A DNA stretch of 64,000 bases from Microlunatus sp. Gsoil 973 (lineage in GTDB: Bacteria > Actinomycetota > Actinomycetes > Propionibacteriales > Propionibacteriaceae), in assembly GCF_009707365.1 (NCBI RefSeq), contig NZ_CP046122.1, forward strand, positions 4,464,001-4,528,000, read 5' to 3'. Position numbers and translations under genes: made by a program. Of this stretch, positions 17,690 to 24,562 are shown piece after piece. The notes under the pieces were generated by a model. The model was not told the origin of the DNA. It made no database searches and worked only from the letters and a program-made list of their open reading frames with translations. The number at the start of each line of letters is the position of its first letter. The first letter of the stretch is position 1.

Positions 17690-18181
17690 TCAGCGGTAGT
17701 TGCTGAACTGCACCGCGAAGTCGTAGTCCTGTTCCTTGATCAACGACTGGACCGTCTGCAGTGCGTCCCGGCTCTTGCTGCTGACCCGTAGCTCGTCGCC
17801 CTGGATCTGGGCCTTGACGCCCTTGGGGCCGTCGTCGCGGATGAGTTTGGAGATCTTCTTGGCGTTCTCGGAGCTGATGCCTTCCTTGATCGAGGCGGTG
17901 ATCCGGGCGACCTTGCCCGAGATCCGGGGCTCGCCGGTGTCGAGCGCCTTCAGGCTCACTCCGCGCCGAATCAGCTTGGACTGGAACACGTCCAGCACGG
18001 CCTTGACCCGCTCCTCGGTGTTGGCCTCCATCTCGATGACCTCTCCCGACCAGCTGATCGAAGCATCGGTGTTCTTGAAGTCGAACCGCTGACGAACCTC
18101 CTTGGCAGCCTGGTTGACCGCGTTGTCGACCTCCTGCCGGTCGACCTTGCTGACGATGTCGAACGAGCTCTCCGAGGCCAT
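17690..18181 (-). CDS. yajQ: YajQ-family nucleotide-binding protein
   Basis: 163 aa, the full family length, with two ferredoxin-like repeats. Diagnostic segments: [18 protein letters not shown] at the N terminus, [28 protein letters not shown], and [21 protein letters not shown]-like strand (here [12 protein letters not shown]) near the end. Members bind nucleotides including c-di-GMP in some bacteria; cellular role in actinobacteria is unsettled. It has its own upstream region next to the tRNA-Tyr gene. Confidence 0.95.
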
Positions 18182-18298: not shown

Positions 18299-18380
18299 GG
18301 CAGGTTGCCCGAGTGGCCAAAGGGAGCGGTCTGTAAAACCGTCGGCTCAGCCTACGTTGGTTCGAATCCAACACCTGCCA
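18299..18380 (+). tRNA. tRNA-Tyr (GTA)
   Basis: Acceptor GGCAGGT at 18299-18305 pairs with ACCTGCC at 18373-18379, with discriminator A at 18380. Anticodon GTA is at 18333-18335 in the loop CTGTAAA, closed by CGGT/ACCG-type pairing; a long variable arm (class II tRNA) and the T-loop GGTTCGAATCC follow. CCA is not encoded. The last 27 bp including the T arm are duplicated at 22260-22286, marking this gene as the integration site of the downstream island. Confidence 0.95.
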
Positions 18381-18381
18381 C
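18355..18381 (+). repeat. Attachment-site direct repeat, left copy (in tRNA-Tyr)
   Basis: 27 bp covering the T arm and 3' acceptor of tRNA-Tyr, identical to 22260-22286. Identity begins at C18355 and stops at A18382 versus C22287. This is the hallmark of integration into a tRNA 3' end in which the incoming element restores the tRNA. Confidence 0.85.
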
Positions 18382-18463
18382 ACGTCGTGAAACCGGTCCC
18401 GGACCGGGTGGAACGCCGGTTCGGGACCGTTCGCCCCTGTCCGGACGCGTTCAGGCCGATCTC

Positions 18464-19159
18464 GTGGACGCCGTGGGTACGACTCTTGACGTATTCGCAG
18501 ACGTGTTCAGCGGCGCTACACCCAAGACGGCGGTGCCGATTCAATGGGACGGCGAGGGACCGGTGACGACTCTGGGTCGGGACCGTCGTGGATGTCTAGG
18601 ATCGGGCCCGCTCCTCGATGCTGATGTCGTTGCCAGCGAGCAGCCGTTGACATTGTGCCTGATCCGAGGCAGCCAGAGTAAGGTTCGTGCCTACGGCGAG
18701 GAGGCCTCTGTGCGGCGTGAAGAGCTGGTCCGACGAGCTGGTGAGGCGCTTGGAGTGCGGATGTCGGCGGGCAGTGCTCACGTTGAGCCGGTCGACGACA
18801 CCCGGAGCGCTCGGCGGTTCATGATCAGTACTCTTGATTCGGCCGGGGTGACGCGTTCGGTTGTTGTTGACGACGAGTCGGGTGACGCCACTGTGACCCC
18901 GGTGCGTGGCCATACTCAGCTGACTGACCTTGAGCGACGAACGGCAGCGCAGATTGCGATTCGGGACCCAAGGTCACAGGCCTTCTTGGACGGCCGCGAG
19001 GCCCATGCGTTGGCACGGCTCGCGGTCAGCGCTGCCGACCTCGGCCGGCGCGCCGTGGTCTTCTTGCGACCAGACGATGAGCATCGTGCTTATGTGATCG
19101 TCGACCTTCTGGCCGGTGCCGTGATGGGGTGGACCGATCGGTCGAATGGAGATCGATGA
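18464..19159 (+). CDS. Island protein, possible copper amine oxidase N-domain-like
   Basis: 231 aa from GTG 18464 (GTG 18473 is an alternative); the open frame extends back through the tRNA, which cannot be coding. I do not recognise a definite family. The C-terminal ~75 residues (LTDLERRTAAQIAIRDPRS, then RAVVFLRPDDEHRAYVIVDL) have the helix-then-sheet pattern and the VVFL...AYVIVDL strands of the small N2/N3 domains of copper amine oxidases, and the next gene resembles the catalytic sandwich of the same enzymes. The stop overlaps the next start as ATGA, so the two products are made together. No signal peptide or TM segment. Function unknown. Confidence 0.55.
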   Translation: MDAVGTTLDVFADVFSGATPKTAVPIQWDGEGPVTTLGRDRRGCLGSGPLLDADVVASEQPLTLCLIRGSQSKVRAYGEEASVRREELVRRAGEALGVRMSAGSAHVEPVDDTRSARRFMISTLDSAGVTRSVVVDDESGDATVTPVRGHTQLTDLERRTAAQIAIRDPRSQAFLDGREAHALARLAVSAADLGRRAVVFLRPDDEHRAYVIVDLLAGAVMGWTDRSNGDR

Positions 19160-19953
19160 GGGTCCGAACGCAGCGGGTCGAGCAGGCCGGATGGTCGGTG
19201 GATGTTCGCTTGACCGCCCGCGGGGGCATGGTTCTCCGGGACGTTCGGTTTCATGATCAGCGGGTCCTTCAGTCCGCGTCGACCCCTTTCGTCTATGTGG
19301 ATTACATCGGTCTGGGCATTGGCGCCTTCACCGACCATCTCGGCACGACGACTGCGGTGCCCGAGGTGCGCGCGACCGTTGACGGCTTCGACATCGCGGT
19401 GCGCTACGACGCCGCGGGGCCGGACTACCTTTACGAGCACATCTGGAGGTTCTTCGGCGATGGTCAGTTCGGTTGCCGGATGGTCGTCCACGGTCCAGGC
19501 GAGGAGCATTCGGGCGGCCACACCTACTTCGTGCCGTTCCGCCTCGATATCGACTGTGGCAGCGGTCTGCGTGACTCGGTCGACGCCTGGTTCGGGCCGC
19601 CCGCTGCCGGCACGTGGAGTGCCCAGACCACTGAAGGGGAGTTGCTGCACGCTCCGAGAAGTCGGTGGGACTGGTCCGTGGTCGACCGGGCAGCAGGACG
19701 CCGGGTGCTGCTCCGCGCGACCGATCCCGCCCATGACCGGTGTTGGGCGGTGCGCTATCGGCCGGAGGAGAGCTTCGGTGCTCTGGGGGTGATCCAGCCT
19801 GGCGCTCCGGGAACCGCCGGGAGTGTTCCTGTGGTGTATGTCGGCGACGAAAGCCTTCAGAACAGCGACGTTGTGCTCTGGTACGTGGCCCAAGTCGACG
19901 CTAAACCTTATGTCGTTACCTGCGGCCCCTGGCTTGGGCTGCAGGGTTACTGA
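19156..19953 (+). CDS. Island protein, degenerate copper amine oxidase-like sandwich domain
   Basis: 265 aa; start ATG 19156 overlaps the previous stop and has GGAG 5 nt upstream. Several segments parallel the supersandwich domain of copper amine oxidases: QAGWSVDVRLTARGGMVLRDV with RRVLxSAS-like strand (RVLQSAS), YLYEHIWRFFGDGQF where the enzyme has N-Y-[DE]-Y...F.xDG, and GHTYFVPFRLDIDCG where it has H-x-H...FRLDxDxDG. The asparagine before the cofactor Tyr and the second copper His are not conserved (Leu and Tyr here), and the protein is less than half the enzyme's length, so oxidase activity is unlikely. Family assignment is by eye. Could be a scaffold or binding protein with the old fold. 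Confidence 0.5.
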   Translation: MRVRTQRVEQAGWSVDVRLTARGGMVLRDVRFHDQRVLQSASTPFVYVDYIGLGIGAFTDHLGTTTAVPEVRATVDGFDIAVRYDAAGPDYLYEHIWRFFGDGQFGCRMVVHGPGEEHSGGHTYFVPFRLDIDCGSGLRDSVDAWFGPPAAGTWSAQTTEGELLHAPRSRWDWSVVDRAAGRRVLLRATDPAHDRCWAVRYRPEESFGALGVIQPGAPGTAGSVPVVYVGDESLQNSDVVLWYVAQVDAKPYVVTCGPWLGLQGY

Positions 19954-19977
19954 CCTTGGAGAGAATGGGGCAACCAG

Positions 19978-20601
19978 ATGCCGGCGACCGGTCACAAGCA
20001 CGGTTGGAAGACCAAGAAGAAGCGTCGGAAGTTCAAGAACTGCGAGGATGCCGGACGGCAGATGCAGGAAGATGCCGCAAACGGTGTTCACTGGGGTGAG
20101 GCGAATTGGGATGTCTCCGCGACAACCTCCCACAGTCAGGTGAAGAAGAACGATGACGGAACCTGGACTGCCAGTACCACGGTTCACCGGACCCTCAACC
20201 AGCGAGGATCTTCGGTCGTCGTCGATCAGCCCTATTGGCCCGGCATGACATCCGACGACCACGACGCCGTCGATGCGGCGACCGGTGGCCTGGAGGACCA
20301 CGAGAACGGGCACCTGGAGATTGCCAAAGACTTCGCCGACAGCTGGGGCGACGGAGATGGCAACACCTCCCTGACCGGAACAGGCTCGACGCGTCAGGAC
20401 GCCGTAAATGATCTTCGCGACAAGATTTCCCAAGATGCCAAGGACTTCACCGATGGCCTGCAGAAGCGCGAGGACGATTACGACGACTTCACCGACCACG
20501 GAACCAAGCAATCCGACGGTCCGGACCACAAGGACGCAGACGGCGATGACGACCCCTACCCAGGCGGCGACGACAGCAAGCTGAACTGTCCCGGCAGGTG
20601 A
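19978..20601 (+). CDS. Island HExxH putative metallopeptidase (DUF922-like)
   Basis: 207 aa, ATG 19978 with GGAGAGAATGGGG upstream, 24 bp after the previous gene. Residues 108-112 are HENGH inside LEDHENGHLEIAKDF, a zincin HExxH helix. The preceding region (VHWGEANWDVSATTSHSQV, then GTWTASTTVHR and PYWPGM) has the beta-rich pattern with W/PxW motifs seen before the HExxH in the DUF922 family of predicted Zn proteases. The N terminus is Lys-rich and the C terminus very acidic (Asp-rich, ~50 residues); no signal peptide. Role unknown; it is probably part of one operon with the two amine-oxidase-like genes. Confidence 0.5.
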   Translation: MPATGHKHGWKTKKKRRKFKNCEDAGRQMQEDAANGVHWGEANWDVSATTSHSQVKKNDDGTWTASTTVHRTLNQRGSSVVVDQPYWPGMTSDDHDAVDAATGGLEDHENGHLEIAKDFADSWGDGDGNTSLTGTGSTRQDAVNDLRDKISQDAKDFTDGLQKREDDYDDFTDHGTKQSDGPDHKDADGDDDPYPGGDDSKLNCPGR

Positions 20602-20770
20602 GGCGCTGCTTGGATTGATCAAAGCTCTCTACGCGTACTGAGGGGCTCGGGAACCGAAGTCTGACCCCGGCCCATTTCTGGACGCCCAATGCGGCGATAT
20701 GCGCGCCACCGAGTGACGATCCACACATCCAGCTGGAATGTGACTCAGGCGCATGCCCGACCTTGCAGAA

Positions 20771-21286
20771 TCATCGTCGCGCCGCCTTGAGATCTGCGAT
20801 CAGTTTGGCTGAGGATGACAATGCCACCAGCCCGAGGACTGCGACCGCGGTGATCAACAGGGACTTGGCGACAGGGTTCGGTTTCTGCGTTGTCGCGTCA
20901 ACGAGAAAGCGCATCAGCGCGAACACTCCCGAAGCGATAGTTGCGAGCCATGTGGTGACAGCGACGAGGGCGGCTGTCTTGATTCCTGGCCTGTACCAAA
21001 TCCGGCGGAATGGGCCAGCTTCGGCGAGCTCTATGCCGATGCCCTCGATCCCACTGTTTCCATCCGCGACTGCGGCAAAGTCTTTCATGCTCAGGACCAT
21101 GTCCTGGTCTTCTCCCGCCCGGGAGAAGGTTCGCAGGACAAGGGGGCGTGCCTTCGAACCGCGGGGTCGCACGAGGACGAAGGGAAAGAGGTCCGGCTGA
21201 CCTCGGCGTCCTGCCCGCGAATAGCCCAGTTGACCGTCGCGACCGAGTACCGGATTTGGAAAGGCCTCCGCCGAGATCCATCGCAT
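20771..21286 (-). CDS. Island membrane protein of unknown function
   Basis: 171 aa. The N-terminal ~100 residues are soluble; two hydrophobic helices follow (TAALVAVTTWLATIASGVFA and SLLITAVAVLGLVALSS), so the protein probably sits in the membrane as a hairpin with both ends in the cytoplasm. I do not recognise a family. It begins 4 bp after the stop of the Cys-rich gene, so the two are one transcriptional unit facing the amine-oxidase-like module. Such a pairing could be a sensor/effector or toxin/immunity pair, but nothing in the sequence decides this. Confidence 0.6.
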   Translation of the reverse strand: MRWISAEAFPNPVLGRDGQLGYSRAGRRGQPDLFPFVLVRPRGSKARPLVLRTFSRAGEDQDMVLSMKDFAAVADGNSGIEGIGIELAEAGPFRRIWYRPGIKTAALVAVTTWLATIASGVFALMRFLVDATTQKPNPVAKSLLITAVAVLGLVALSSSAKLIADLKAARR

Positions 21287-21290
21287 AGGT

Positions 21291-22139
21291 TCAGGCGACT
21301 GCCGGGACGGATTGGCTATAGGTCTCTCCCAAGACCACCAGCGAGGCGTCAGCGCCGGCCACCACGTCGAGACGTCGGAACGGAGTCTCCTCTACATGCA
21401 TGTTCCAGCTGTATGCATGCAAGCCGAGCGCGTCTGCTAGGAGAAGGGTGTCCACTGCGCCACCTGATTGGTCCCGATCACCCACCCATACGTCGGCATC
21501 GAGGACCGGGTAGATGCTCGCGAGCCAAGGTTCAAGTTGATCTTCCAGCCAATGACCAAACCGTTGAACGATCGCTTCGGTCTCAGCACGAGCCGCCCCA
21601 TCGACCCCACCGAGCCCATCCCAATAGCGATTCGCATTTTCGCGCTGCCGGATCTGACGGAAGACGTCATCACGGACCGGCTCGCCTACCTCTTCTGAGA
21701 TCCGACCGAGAAACTTCCCCCTCGCTCCCTCGGAGTCGTTCACGAGGTCGAAGAGTCGCCGAACCGCACGCCGAACCGTTTCAAGATCAACCTCCCCGCG
21801 GTGCCCGATCGAAGCTTGACCCACGTGCGGCATCTGGGACTCAAAATCCAGGCTGCTCTCAAACTCGGGCTCAGCTTTGACACCGGGGCCATCCCCAACA
21901 TTGGGTCCATTCCCGGGTCCACGCCCTCCACCGCTGCCAGGCCCCCGAGGTCCGCCACCACCGGCGCTTCGTGTCAGAATCCCAGGAAGACAGCGACTAC
22001 AGATGAACCGCGGCTGCTGGCGGTGAAGACCGCCGTGCTCGGGGCAACTGATGCAGTTGCAGAGCTGGCATACACCGATCCCTCGCGTTGCAGTGCCCGA
22101 GCCGGTCCCCGAGACACACTGGTAGCACATCGAATACAT
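21291..22139 (-). CDS. Island Cys-rich (zinc-ribbon-like) protein of unknown function
   Basis: 282 aa. The first ~55 residues contain CYQC, CQLCNCISCPEHGG and CSRCLP, a treble-clef or B-box-like zinc module. A Gly/Pro-rich linker (~residues 58-85) leads to a ~180-residue acidic domain with VDLETVRRAVRRLFDLV and SWNMHVEETPFRRLD; no family recognised. The gene starts about 120 bp inside the right boundary repeat of the island and is transcribed inward, followed at 4 bp by the membrane protein gene. Base composition looks less GC-rich than the flanks (impression, not measured). Confidence 0.6.
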   Translation of the reverse strand: MYSMCYQCVSGTGSGTATRGIGVCQLCNCISCPEHGGLHRQQPRFICSRCLPGILTRSAGGGGPRGPGSGGGRGPGNGPNVGDGPGVKAEPEFESSLDFESQMPHVGQASIGHRGEVDLETVRRAVRRLFDLVNDSEGARGKFLGRISEEVGEPVRDDVFRQIRQRENANRYWDGLGGVDGAARAETEAIVQRFGHWLEDQLEPWLASIYPVLDADVWVGDRDQSGGAVDTLLLADALGLHAYSWNMHVEETPFRRLDVVAGADASLVVLGETYSQSVPAVA

Positions 22140-22259
22140 GTCGAACCGCCCCCGGTGTAGGTCTGCCTCATTATGCCGCCAGGGGGCGCAACACAGGAGG
22201 ATAGAGGTCTCGCATCCAGCTGCCTACAAGAACCCGTCGGGGCGGCGAAATCCGCACCC

Positions 22260-22286
22260 CGTTGGTTCGAATCCAACACCTGCCAC
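22260..22286 (+). repeat. Attachment-site direct repeat, right copy
   Basis: 27 bp identical to the tRNA-Tyr 3' end at 18355-18381. No tRNA can be folded from the sequence before it (no matching acceptor, D arm or GTA loop), so it is a boundary remnant and not a second tRNA gene. Confidence 0.85.
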
Positions 22287-22309: not shown

Positions 22310-22845
22310 GTGGATGTCGAGTTGCGGCTGGTTCGTCGGACGATGCTGTTGCCGTCGCCAGCCTGCTCCGGACCAACCGAGCCTTCCTCGCACGGTGGGA
22401 CCCAGTTCGGGACGATGCCTGGTTCACGGAGAAGGGACAGCGCGCAGAGCTCGAACAGGCCCTCGCGCGACACGATCAAGGCCTGGTCGTCCCGTACGTC
22501 ATCCATGCCGACGGCCAGACCGTCGGGCGGCTCAACATCAACAACATCGTCCGTGGTGCGTTCCAGTCCGCGCATCTGGGCTACTGGGTCGACCAAGCGA
22601 TCAACGGTCGAGGGGTGGCCACGGCAGCGGTCGCCGAAGCGGTCCGCAGGGCATTCGGCGAGCTTCAGCTGCATCGCCTTCAGGCCGACACTCTCGTCCA
22701 CAACGTCGCTTCCCAGCGGGTCCTGGCCCACAACGACTTCACTCGAATCGGTCTGGCTCCGCGGTACCTGCGCATCGCCGGCTGTTGGCAGGACCACCTG
22801 CTTCATCAGCGCCTGAACGCGCAGTGGACCAAGCTGCCCGGCTGA
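22310..22845 (+). CDS. GNAT-family N-acetyltransferase (RimJ/RimL-like), apparent frameshift
   Basis: Acetyl-CoA-dependent acetyltransferase; the RimJ/RimL-like features are LGYWVDQAINGRGVATAAV (motif A, CoA pyrophosphate binding) and ELQLHRLQADTLVHN with VLAHNDFTRIGLAPRYL. The natural N terminus VDVELRLVR starts at GTG 22310, 24 bp after the island boundary, but the frame then shifts. Adding one C at 22337 gives LVRPDDAVAVASLLRTN, the classic GNAT beginning, so a missing C in a CC run is likely. The downstream frame alone has no good start codon. Target is unknown. This was presumably the original neighbour of tRNA-Tyr before the island arrived. Confidence 0.78.
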
Positions 22846-22957: not shown

Positions 22958-24562
22958 ATGGACTGGTGGGACAGGGCCCCGGACAGATCGCGTCGACCCA
23001 TCCGCGTTCCGACCCCTGTGACCCGGTACGAGCAGGGCGCGACCGTCGCGCCATGGGGACCGCGTCGGGCGCTGGATCTCCAGCCATTGATCGGCAACCG
23101 GGCGGTGGCCCAACGCGTCGCACAGGAAGCGAAGACTGCGCCGACTGCCAAGCCCAAGCCCTCGATCAACAAGACCGGCTTCATCGACAACGACGATGGG
23201 TCCAACATCCGTACCGGACCAGCCGAATCCGGCGGCCTGGCCCTGACTGACGCGCCGATGCCACCAGCCACCCGAGTCTTCGTATCCGGCACCCATCCGG
23301 AGGCGCCCGAGTGGTGGTACGTGACCGCATTCCTCGGCGAGACGCTGGTCCGCGGCTACGTGCAAGGTTTCCGCGTCAACATCTCACCGCCAGAGCCGCT
23401 CGCCAAGCTCTATCAGATCAAACCCGGGGACACCGCCGAAGGGCTCGCCGTACAGGAGTTCAAACAGGCGGTCCGTGATGGTCACGATCTCCGCTACTAC
23501 GAGAACGTCCTCCTCTACGTCAATCGCCAGGCCGGCCGAGCGGGGGTCCGGGGCGACTATCAGGATCCGGGGCTCTTGGGTGGTGGCGCGAACAACGTTC
23601 AGCTCGAGGCCGGACGGCGGATCTGGCTGATCAGTCCGACCTACGCACGGGCGCTGGAGCAGGTCGTCCCGGACGGATCCTTCTCGAACGGGATGTACGC
23701 GAAGGTCAAGCGCTTCGTGCAGCACATCGAGGACATCTTCCAGAGCGTCACTGATTCACCCGACTACCTCGACGACGTGGCCGGTGAGTTCGCGGAAGTG
23801 ATCCGCGAGCACAAGGCGGAGATCATCGGCATCGTCATCGCCTTCCTCACTGCGGAGGCTGCCTCGGCGTTGCTGGCCGCCTCACCGACGGGGGTCGGCC
23901 AGATCGCAGCGGCTCTCATCCAGCTCGTTCTCGCCGCCTTCGGCGCCGCCGGGATGGTGCAGGCGGTGGTGGGCGCGCTGAAACACGCCTCCCAGTGGCT
24001 CAATCTTGCGTGGACGGCGAAGGGCGACGCGAAACAGATCATGGAAGCCAGCAAGGAGTTCCTTCGGATGCTGGTCAGCATCGCGATGGCGGCGGCCGCC
24101 TACATCGGTGTCAAGGGAAACTTCGCGACGGCGGTGAAGATCGGCAACTCGATCGATATGGGCGGCAACGCGGCATTCGCGCTCGCGGGTGGCGGAACGA
24201 TGACAAGTGGAGAGGCGGCAGCAGCAGCGGCCGCCGGCAAACCCAAGTTCGGTGGTGCGATCGGATCCGGAACTGCTTCGGCGATGTCTGGTAAGGACCG
24301 CGACAAGGATTGGTACGAGGACGAATACGGTGATGATCCCCGCAACCAGTTACCGAAGCGGCAACGCATCAGTGACGGCAACAAGGTCGAGCTCGAGGAC
24401 TCCGGGTGGTTGAGGAAGAAGCTGCCCGACGCGGACCGGCGTCGCGAATTCATGAAGTGGCTCGAGGCGAATCACAAGCTGGGCGAAGCACACGAGCACC
24501 TCAGGCCAGGTTCGCCGCAGGCCGAGGAGATGCTCCGGCGATTTCTGGCCGAGAACCCGTGA
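22958..24562 (+). CDS. Putative contractile-injection-system (eCIS)-type effector/toxin
   Basis: 534 aa, no signal peptide. Residues 41-53 (LQPLIGNRAVAQR) match the L-Q..xGNxAVxxL peptide that recurs near the N terminus of proteins carried by extracellular contractile injection systems, often next to DUF4157. An SH3-like stretch (~75-145) and a LysM-like segment (KLYQIKPGDTAEGLAVQEF, ~150) follow. Residues ~287-345 are a long hydrophobic helical region reminiscent of colicin-type translocation/pore segments, then a flexible Ala/Gly tract and a charged C-terminal ~100 residues ending HEHLRPGSPQ. No sheath, tube or AAA genes are nearby, so it would act with a system elsewhere. The family link is by motif only. 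Confidence 0.5.
   Translation: MDWWDRAPDRSRRPIRVPTPVTRYEQGATVAPWGPRRALDLQPLIGNRAVAQRVAQEAKTAPTAKPKPSINKTGFIDNDDGSNIRTGPAESGGLALTDAPMPPATRVFVSGTHPEAPEWWYVTAFLGETLVRGYVQGFRVNISPPEPLAKLYQIKPGDTAEGLAVQEFKQAVRDGHDLRYYENVLLYVNRQAGRAGVRGDYQDPGLLGGGANNVQLEAGRRIWLISPTYARALEQVVPDGSFSNGMYAKVKRFVQHIEDIFQSVTDSPDYLDDVAGEFAEVIREHKAEIIGIVIAFLTAEAASALLAASPTGVGQIAAALIQLVLAAFGAAGMVQAVVGALKHASQWLNLAWTAKGDAKQIMEASKEFLRMLVSIAMAAAAYIGVKGNFATAVKIGNSIDMGGNAAFALAGGGTMTSGEAAAAAAAGKPKFGGAIGSGTASAMSGKDRDKDWYEDEYGDDPRNQLPKRQRISDGNKVELEDSGWLRKKLPDADRRREFMKWLEANHKLGEAHEHLRPGSPQAEEMLRRFLAENP

What the first reader, a model, noticed from the sequence alone, without database searches (positions are those of the whole stretch)
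18355..22286. Small tRNA-Tyr island without integrase
Identical 27-bp copies of the tRNA-Tyr 3' end (18355-18381, 22260-22286) bound five genes, none a recombinase. The intact tRNA is on the left and the orphan copy on the right, as expected after site-specific integration. A 3.9 kb cargo-only element suggests a trans-mobilised (CIME-like) element or a remnant. The gene next to the right repeat reads like ordinary chromosome.
Basis: partly seen in the sequence, partly recalled or inferred. Interest (0 to 1): 0.72.

Follow-up and report, generated by a model that had tools for sequence, protein, structure and literature searches.

The report
Small leftover island at tRNA-Tyr
A 3.9-kb block of five unusual genes sits between a tyrosine tRNA gene and a displaced copy of that gene's tail, most likely a stripped-down remnant of a mobile element at a spot where DNA has inserted repeatedly in this group of bacteria; the arrangement is real but of a known kind.

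Summary
The tRNA-Tyr tail occurs exactly twice in the 4.91-Mb genome, the intact tRNA is on the left, and none of the five genes between is a recombinase. Comparison changes the interpretation. In 5 of 16 measurable genus genomes tRNA-Tyr is followed within 74-141 bp by tRNA-Thr; here 146.6 kb intervene and elsewhere up to 267 kb. So the right repeat is an internal boundary of a large variable region, and the DNA beyond it is not the ancestral neighbour. Two sister species carry an intact tyrosine integrase beside tRNA-Tyr (G002, G006), one a relic (G012); G004 and some distant taxa show other small segments without an integrase. Eight of ten orphan tails examined start at or just before the anticodon loop; this one keeps only the T-arm and 3' end, so a different recombinase class probably made it. 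This genome has no relative of the sisters' integrase and no integrase in the 146.6 kb. Best reading: an integrase-less, CIME-like remnant at a tRNA-Tyr insertion hotspot, with cargo nearly unique to this genome. New member of a known kind, modest interest.

The parts
17690..18181 (-). yajQ (DUF520), left anchor of the tRNA-Tyr locus
   Evidence: Pfam PF04461 5e-60; found near tRNA-Tyr in 16 of 20 relatives' stretches
18299..18381 (+). intact tRNA-Tyr (GTA)
   Evidence: ARAGORN
18355..18381 (+). left copy of the 27-bp repeat (T-arm to 3' end), putative attL core
18387..18434 (+). terminator-like hairpin after the tRNA
   Evidence: RNA fold -35 kcal/mol, z -2.92
18464..19159 (+). ORF1, about 231 aa, no family match above cut-off; its stop overlaps the ORF2 start (ATGA)
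19156..19953 (+). ORF2, 265 aa, partial match to the copper amine oxidase enzyme domain
   Evidence: PF01179 5.7e-9, 35.8 bits (cut-off 27), best stretch 49 residues; NF008559 3.6e-7, 29 bits, far below its cut-off of 651
19978..20601 (+). ORF3, 207 aa, DUF922 with HENGH (HExxH) motif, possible metalloprotease
   Evidence: PF06037 3.8e-7, 30.8 bits over cut-off 27; motif read
20771..21286 (-). ORF4, 171 aa, no family above cut-off; hydrophobic stretch in its C-terminal half (by eye)
21291..22139 (-). ORF5, 282 aa, cysteine-rich N-terminus, no family; among 57 genomes only in the window genome
22260..22286 (+). right copy of the 27-bp repeat, orphan tRNA-Tyr tail, putative attR core
22312..22845 (+). 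GNAT acetyltransferase frame with disrupted N-terminus
   Evidence: PF13302 2.8e-18; frames compared

Best explanation
The 3.9-kb segment is an integrase-less remnant (CIME-like) that forms the tRNA-proximal layer of a larger insertion hotspot between tRNA-Tyr and tRNA-Thr. Inferred steps: a tyrosine recombinase of the T-arm/3'-end type exchanged strands inside the last 27 bp of tRNA-Tyr; the incoming DNA rebuilt the tRNA; the original tail was displaced to 22260-22286; integrase and transfer genes were later lost, or never lay in this segment, leaving five cargo genes. The 142.7 kb to the right, up to tRNA-Thr, is also non-ancestral and variable. Shown: the repeat pair, the gene content, absence of an integrase, and the variable gap in relatives. 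Inferred: the recombination event, its order and the loss of the integrase.
For: Unique exact pair in the correct orientation. In 5 of 16 genus genomes where both tRNAs lie on one contig the gap to tRNA-Thr is 74-141 bp; in the window genome it is 146,636 bp; the other 10 range from 1.1 to 267 kb. G006 has tRNA-Tyr, an intact Phage_integrase gene, then an orphan tail 166,530 bp on, followed by a degraded copy of the same integrase; G002 has the intact gene at the same place; G012 has a relic beside tRNA-Tyr and an orphan tail on another contig. G004 has a 3.15-kb segment bounded in the same way without an integrase. Of 80 yajQ-anchored loci, 70 have a callable tRNA-Tyr and 6 of these an orphan tail. 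Three of the five ORFs have no family match and the genes are nearly private to this genome. GC is 63.0% against a local mean of 66.5% (81 of 1982 windows as low).
Against: No integrase relic lies in the segment, so decay from a complete element is not directly visible. The core is T-arm only, unlike 8 of 10 orphan tails examined. No genome with the empty site and the same right flank was found. Tetranucleotide composition is not strongly deviant (156 of 1982 windows at least as far). No hairpin follows the orphan (z 0.34) although one follows the 8 other filled-site stretches folded; this is weak evidence either way, because 2 of 6 empty sites folded also lack one.
Confidence: 0.7

Rival explanations
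1. A minimal cargo-only element that still moves, excised and integrated in trans by a T-arm-type integrase of a visiting phage or conjugative element.
For: Both 27-bp copies are perfect, about 90% of the segment is coding, the five ORFs are uninterrupted and no integrase relic is present. Other small segments without a detected integrase occur at the same site in G004 and in distant actinobacteria (L064, L109, L113).
Against: No integrase linked to this core in the genome; no exact 22-bp core in the viral contig collection; no homologous element in 57, 293 or 394 genomes searched with three of its proteins; the small segments elsewhere carry different genes.
Confidence: 0.12
2. The right-hand copy was made by rearrangement, not site-specific integration: a deletion or translocation joined a tRNA-Tyr tail to the acetyltransferase region.
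For: A broken acetyltransferase directly beside the copy; the right flank matches other places in relatives, not their tRNA-Tyr loci; no hairpin after the orphan, though empty sites can lack it too.
Against: The repeat ends one base past the tRNA 3' end; orientation and order fit integration; the site receives integrase-borne islands in sister species.
Confidence: 0.1
3. A decayed island of the same SLP1-like integrase family that serves the sister species, its longer anticodon-loop core having mutated away.
For: Same tRNA gene and genus as G002, G006 and G012, which carry that integrase or its relic.
Against: The 27-mer is untouched while the sequence just left of it shows no similarity beyond shuffles; the motif CCTAGT(C/G)AGA found left of the orphans of G012, G006 and G004 is absent (it is also absent in the 6 non-genus orphans, so this is weak); no relative of that integrase in this genome.
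Confidence: 0.06

Closest known systems
CIME (cis-mobilizable element), as defined in PMC5704250 (passages)
   Same: Lacks integration and transfer genes, keeps direct repeats that look like attL and attR, lies in a stacked region at a tRNA gene
   Different: No neighbouring integrative element with an integrase in the same array; mobilisation never tested
tRNA-borne genomic islands (Islander class with T-stem site J, PMC4383910, passages)
   Same: Intact tRNA plus displaced 3' fragment in the same orientation; short T-arm core
   Different: No integrase in the interval, which the Islander procedure tests for
SLP1-like integrative elements at tRNA-Tyr (SLP1 integrase subfamily named in PMC3218068, passages; tRNA-Tyr as SLP1 target is recalled)
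   Same: Same tRNA gene, same yajQ neighbourhood; integrases 38-41% identical to those of G002/G006 sit there in Streptomyces and Actinomadura records
   Different: This genome has no such integrase and its core is T-arm only. That the sister integrases belong to the SLP1 subfamily proper was not tested by a tree

Membership tests
tRNA-borne genomic island | Intact tRNA gene plus displaced 3' fragment, same orientation, ends matching | tested here: met
tRNA-borne genomic island | Integrase gene inside the interval | tested here: not met
tRNA-borne genomic island | Absent from the same site in relatives (empty site) | tested here: inconclusive
   tRNA-Thr follows tRNA-Tyr within 141 bp in 5 of 16 genus genomes, but none has the window's right flank there
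CIME | No integration or transfer genes | tested here: met
   no integrase in the segment or gap; no FtsK-type gene in the 146.6-kb gap; other transfer systems not searched
CIME | attL and attR retained | tested here: inconclusive
   identical 27-bp cores; arm sites and function unknown
CIME | Moves by recombination with a related element | not testable with these tools
   needs excision assays or reads
SLP1-like element | Related integrase beside tRNA-Tyr | tested here: not met
   no match in G000; intact in G002 and G006, relic in G012
SLP1-like element | Core from about the anticodon loop to the 3' end | tested here: not met
   27 bp only; 8 of 10 orphan tails examined have the longer core

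The most novel reading that the evidence does not exclude
A self-contained cargo cassette of about 3.9 kb, carrying a coupled gene pair (one amine-oxidase-like), a DUF922 protease and two unknown proteins, that travels between actinobacteria at tRNA-Tyr using integrases borrowed from other elements, one of several unrelated minimal cassettes using this site.
Probability: 0.08. Interest if true: 0.6.

Novelty: new member of a known kind. Interest (0 to 1): 0.3.

Why it matters
It shows that a tidy pair of tRNA repeats can mark only the outermost layer of a much larger insertion region: judged alone the island is 3.9 kb, judged against relatives the variable region is 146.6 kb. The tRNA-Tyr to tRNA-Thr gap in this genus (74 bp to 267 kb) is a ready system for studying how islands stack at one site, with intact and decayed copies of one integrase available for comparison.

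Tried and rejected
Considered that the 3.9 kb is a whole island in ordinary chromosome: rejected because tRNA-Thr and tRNA-Met are displaced by 146.6 kb. Considered a resident helper integrase: the genome has 8 Phage_integrase matches; 5 of 8 lie beside tRNA-Ala, -Met, -Thr, -Ile and -Lys, 3 of 8 have no tRNA in the stretch fetched, and the core occurs nowhere else. Considered that the orphan similarity reaches the anticodon loop: not better than shuffles. Considered that a missing hairpin after the orphan proves an altered right side: dropped as proof after the control, since 2 of 6 empty sites also lack it (z -0.12 and 0.03; the other four -2.07 to -4.07). Because of this the rearrangement rival was lowered from 0.12 to 0.10.

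Led nowhere: exact 22-base core in viral contigs, 0 matches; ORF3 in viral contigs, 6 pattern stretches but none confirmed, and in phages and plasmids, none; ORF5 and ORF2 in plasmids, none; solved structures for ORF1, ORF2 and ORF3 gave nothing below E 0.09; AlphaFold models of ORF2 and ORF5 were too poor to use (mean pLDDT 41 and 40), so no fold search was run. The weak matches of ORF2 in G076 and ORF3 in G534 (E 6e-4 and 2.8e-4, with stop codons) were not taken as homologues. Literature searches for Microlunatus with islands and for SLP1 with tRNA listed no paper on this locus; only the first hits were listed. The genus name Microlunatus is a guess from recall; the calls show only that named Propionibacteriaceae have the closest yajQ.
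Full report
What is there. tRNA-Tyr(GTA) lies at 18299-18381. Its last 26 bases plus the next one recur exactly at 22260-22286 in the same orientation, or 27 bases by the gene end that ARAGORN gives. The 26-base core has only these two matches in the 4,913,910-bp single-contig genome with up to 3 mismatches, and about 4e-10 matches to a 27-mer are expected by chance in 202 kb. Between the copies five ORFs cover 3479 of 3878 bp. ORF1 and ORF2 overlap by ATGA, ORF3 follows on the same strand, ORF4 and ORF5 run towards them on the other strand. Pfam gives a partial copper amine oxidase match for ORF2 and DUF922 for ORF3, nothing above cut-off for ORF1, ORF4 and ORF5. NCBIfam adds only a sub-threshold amine oxidase match; PADLOC and PHROGs give nothing for the five. 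No recombinase is present, and tblastn with the two sister-species integrases finds no relic in the segment (best E 0.83).

The right repeat is not the edge of the chromosome. The left neighbour is yajQ, which lies near tRNA-Tyr in 16 of 20 relatives' stretches and in G002 and G009 but not in the stretch held for G006. In the genus, tRNA-Thr(GGT) and tRNA-Met come next. I could measure the gap from tRNA-Tyr to tRNA-Thr in 16 genomes: 74, 75, 76, 138 and 141 bp in five; 1.1, 1.4, 1.7 and 2.7 kb in four; 20.3, 29.6, 38.5, 146.6 (the window genome), 233.5, 238.0 and 267.2 kb in seven. G012 is split over contigs and not counted; G001, G005 and G015 could not be measured. Gene comparison covered the whole gap for the window genome, G003, G004, G008 and G011, parts of it for G006, G012 and G019, and not G002. 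In it the window genome's gap shares, apart from low-identity (22-41%) matches, only two genes with another species: those in the last 1.5 kb before tRNA-Thr, with G012. Other pairs share more: G004 and G008 share a run of genes, G006 shares two or three genes with G011 and G012. DNA from the first 8 kb right of the repeat has matches in 20 of 20 genus genomes (own included), but in none at the tRNA-Tyr locus; one small group of genes is colinear elsewhere in G011, and the 534-aa gene is 76% identical to one in G005. The acetyltransferase beside the repeat is disrupted at its N-terminus.

Who inserts at this tRNA. G012 carries an integrase relic beside tRNA-Tyr. Searched in 197 family genomes, 44 had some match to this fragment; close ones (78% identity, open frames of 541 and 505 aa) only in G002 and G006, a 48% one in G004 elsewhere in its genome, the rest at 46% or less or short; the window genome had none. 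In G002 and G006 the gene stands directly beside tRNA-Tyr and matches Phage_integrase above cut-off. G006 has an orphan tail 166,530 bp further on, followed by a degraded second copy of the integrase, which I read as two stacked islands. Integrases 38-41% identical lie beside yajQ in Streptomyces and Actinomadura records (L073, L081, L084, L095, L106; in 4 of these 5 a tRNA-Tyr was called between). PMC3218068 (passages) names an SLP1 integrase subfamily of actinobacterial elements; that SLP1 itself targets tRNA-Tyr is recalled. No FtsK-type gene lies in the known gap parts of the eight genomes searched, so these islands are not obviously conjugative elements of that type.

Two kinds of core. 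I compared ten orphan tails. Eight (G004, G006, G012, L081, L093, L109, L113, L116) start at or just before the anticodon loop and share about 50-55 bp with their tRNA, some with mismatches. Two, the window genome and L064 of Kribbella steppae, share only the T-arm and 3' end. Islander (PMC4383910, passages) divides tRNA attachment sites into anticodon-loop and T-stem classes. The window segment therefore fits the T-stem class and probably a different recombinase. A motif CCTAGT(C/G)AGA lies 79-90 bases before the tail end in G004, G006 and G012 and in none of the other seven, the window included. Of nine filled-site stretches folded after tRNA or orphan tails, eight form a strong hairpin (z -2.9 to -5.1) and the one after the window's orphan does not (z 0.34). 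As a control I folded six empty sites: z -2.23, -2.81, -4.07, -2.07, -0.12 and 0.03. So a missing hairpin is also seen at untouched sites and proves nothing.

How common is it. In the family 136 of 198 genomes have a match to the tail, and 4 of them have two copies: the window genome, G012, G004 and G287 (the last in two short contigs, unresolved). Of 80 yajQ-anchored loci, 70 had a callable tRNA-Tyr and 6 of these an orphan tail within the stretch held. Small segments without a detected integrase therefore recur: G004, L064, L109 and L113; L116 has a relic. Pfam on 9 ORFs of L064, L109 and L113 gave vanadium-chloroperoxidase-like, RibD, phosphotransferase and cupin domains, no recombinase; G004's ORFs had no family. 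Each has different genes.

The cargo. ORF5 is found only in the window genome among 57, ORF2 in the window genome and one weak interrupted match among 293, ORF3 likewise among 394. Nothing was found for ORF3 in phages, plasmids and viral contigs or for ORF2 and ORF5 in plasmids. ORF1 and ORF4 were not searched beyond family libraries, plus solved structures for ORF1. The amine oxidase resemblance of ORF2 covers only short pieces, so enzyme activity is not implied. AlphaFold models were unusable. What the genes do is unknown; secreted or surface protein processing is a guess.

Verdict. A CIME-like, integrase-less remnant of site-specific insertion at tRNA-Tyr, the outermost layer of a 146.6-kb variable region. 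The CIME definition (PMC5704250, passages) fits for gene content and repeats; mobilisation is untested. The finding is real, the interpretation partly right, the boundary claim wrong, and the kind is known.

Noticed in passing
G006:C1:1011054-1278429 (L191, L192, L170): Apparently two stacked islands at tRNA-Tyr: intact integrase, 166.5 kb, orphan tail, degraded second integrase, then about 100 kb to tRNA-Thr.
   Followed up: partly
G004:C20, between the two tail copies (L032): A 3.15-kb segment without an integrase at the same tRNA-Tyr, with a trypsin-like secreted protease ORF and a lipoprotein-like ORF (read by eye; no Pfam match).
   Followed up: partly
L064, L109, L113, L116: Small orphan-bounded segments of 1.2-3.2 kb after tRNA-Tyr in Kribbella, Actinomadura and Planotetraspora, each with different genes.
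   Followed up: partly
22312-22845: GNAT acetyltransferase frame next to the right repeat has its expected N-terminal peptide in another frame.
   Followed up: partly
22958-24562: 534-aa protein, 76% identical to one in G005, with an N-terminal LIGNRAVAQ motif that by recall resembles proteins near contractile injection systems.
   Followed up: no
G000:C1:4367370-4372272 and 3258862-3263642: Integrase plus FtsK-type gene beside tRNA-Lys and tRNA-Thr, likely integrative elements elsewhere in the same genome.
   Followed up: no
L038, L192, L032, 79-90 bases before the end of the orphan tails: Shared motif CCTAGT(C/G)AGA beside the tail copies of G012, G006 and G004, a possible integrase arm site; absent in the window and in six non-genus orphans.
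   Followed up: partly
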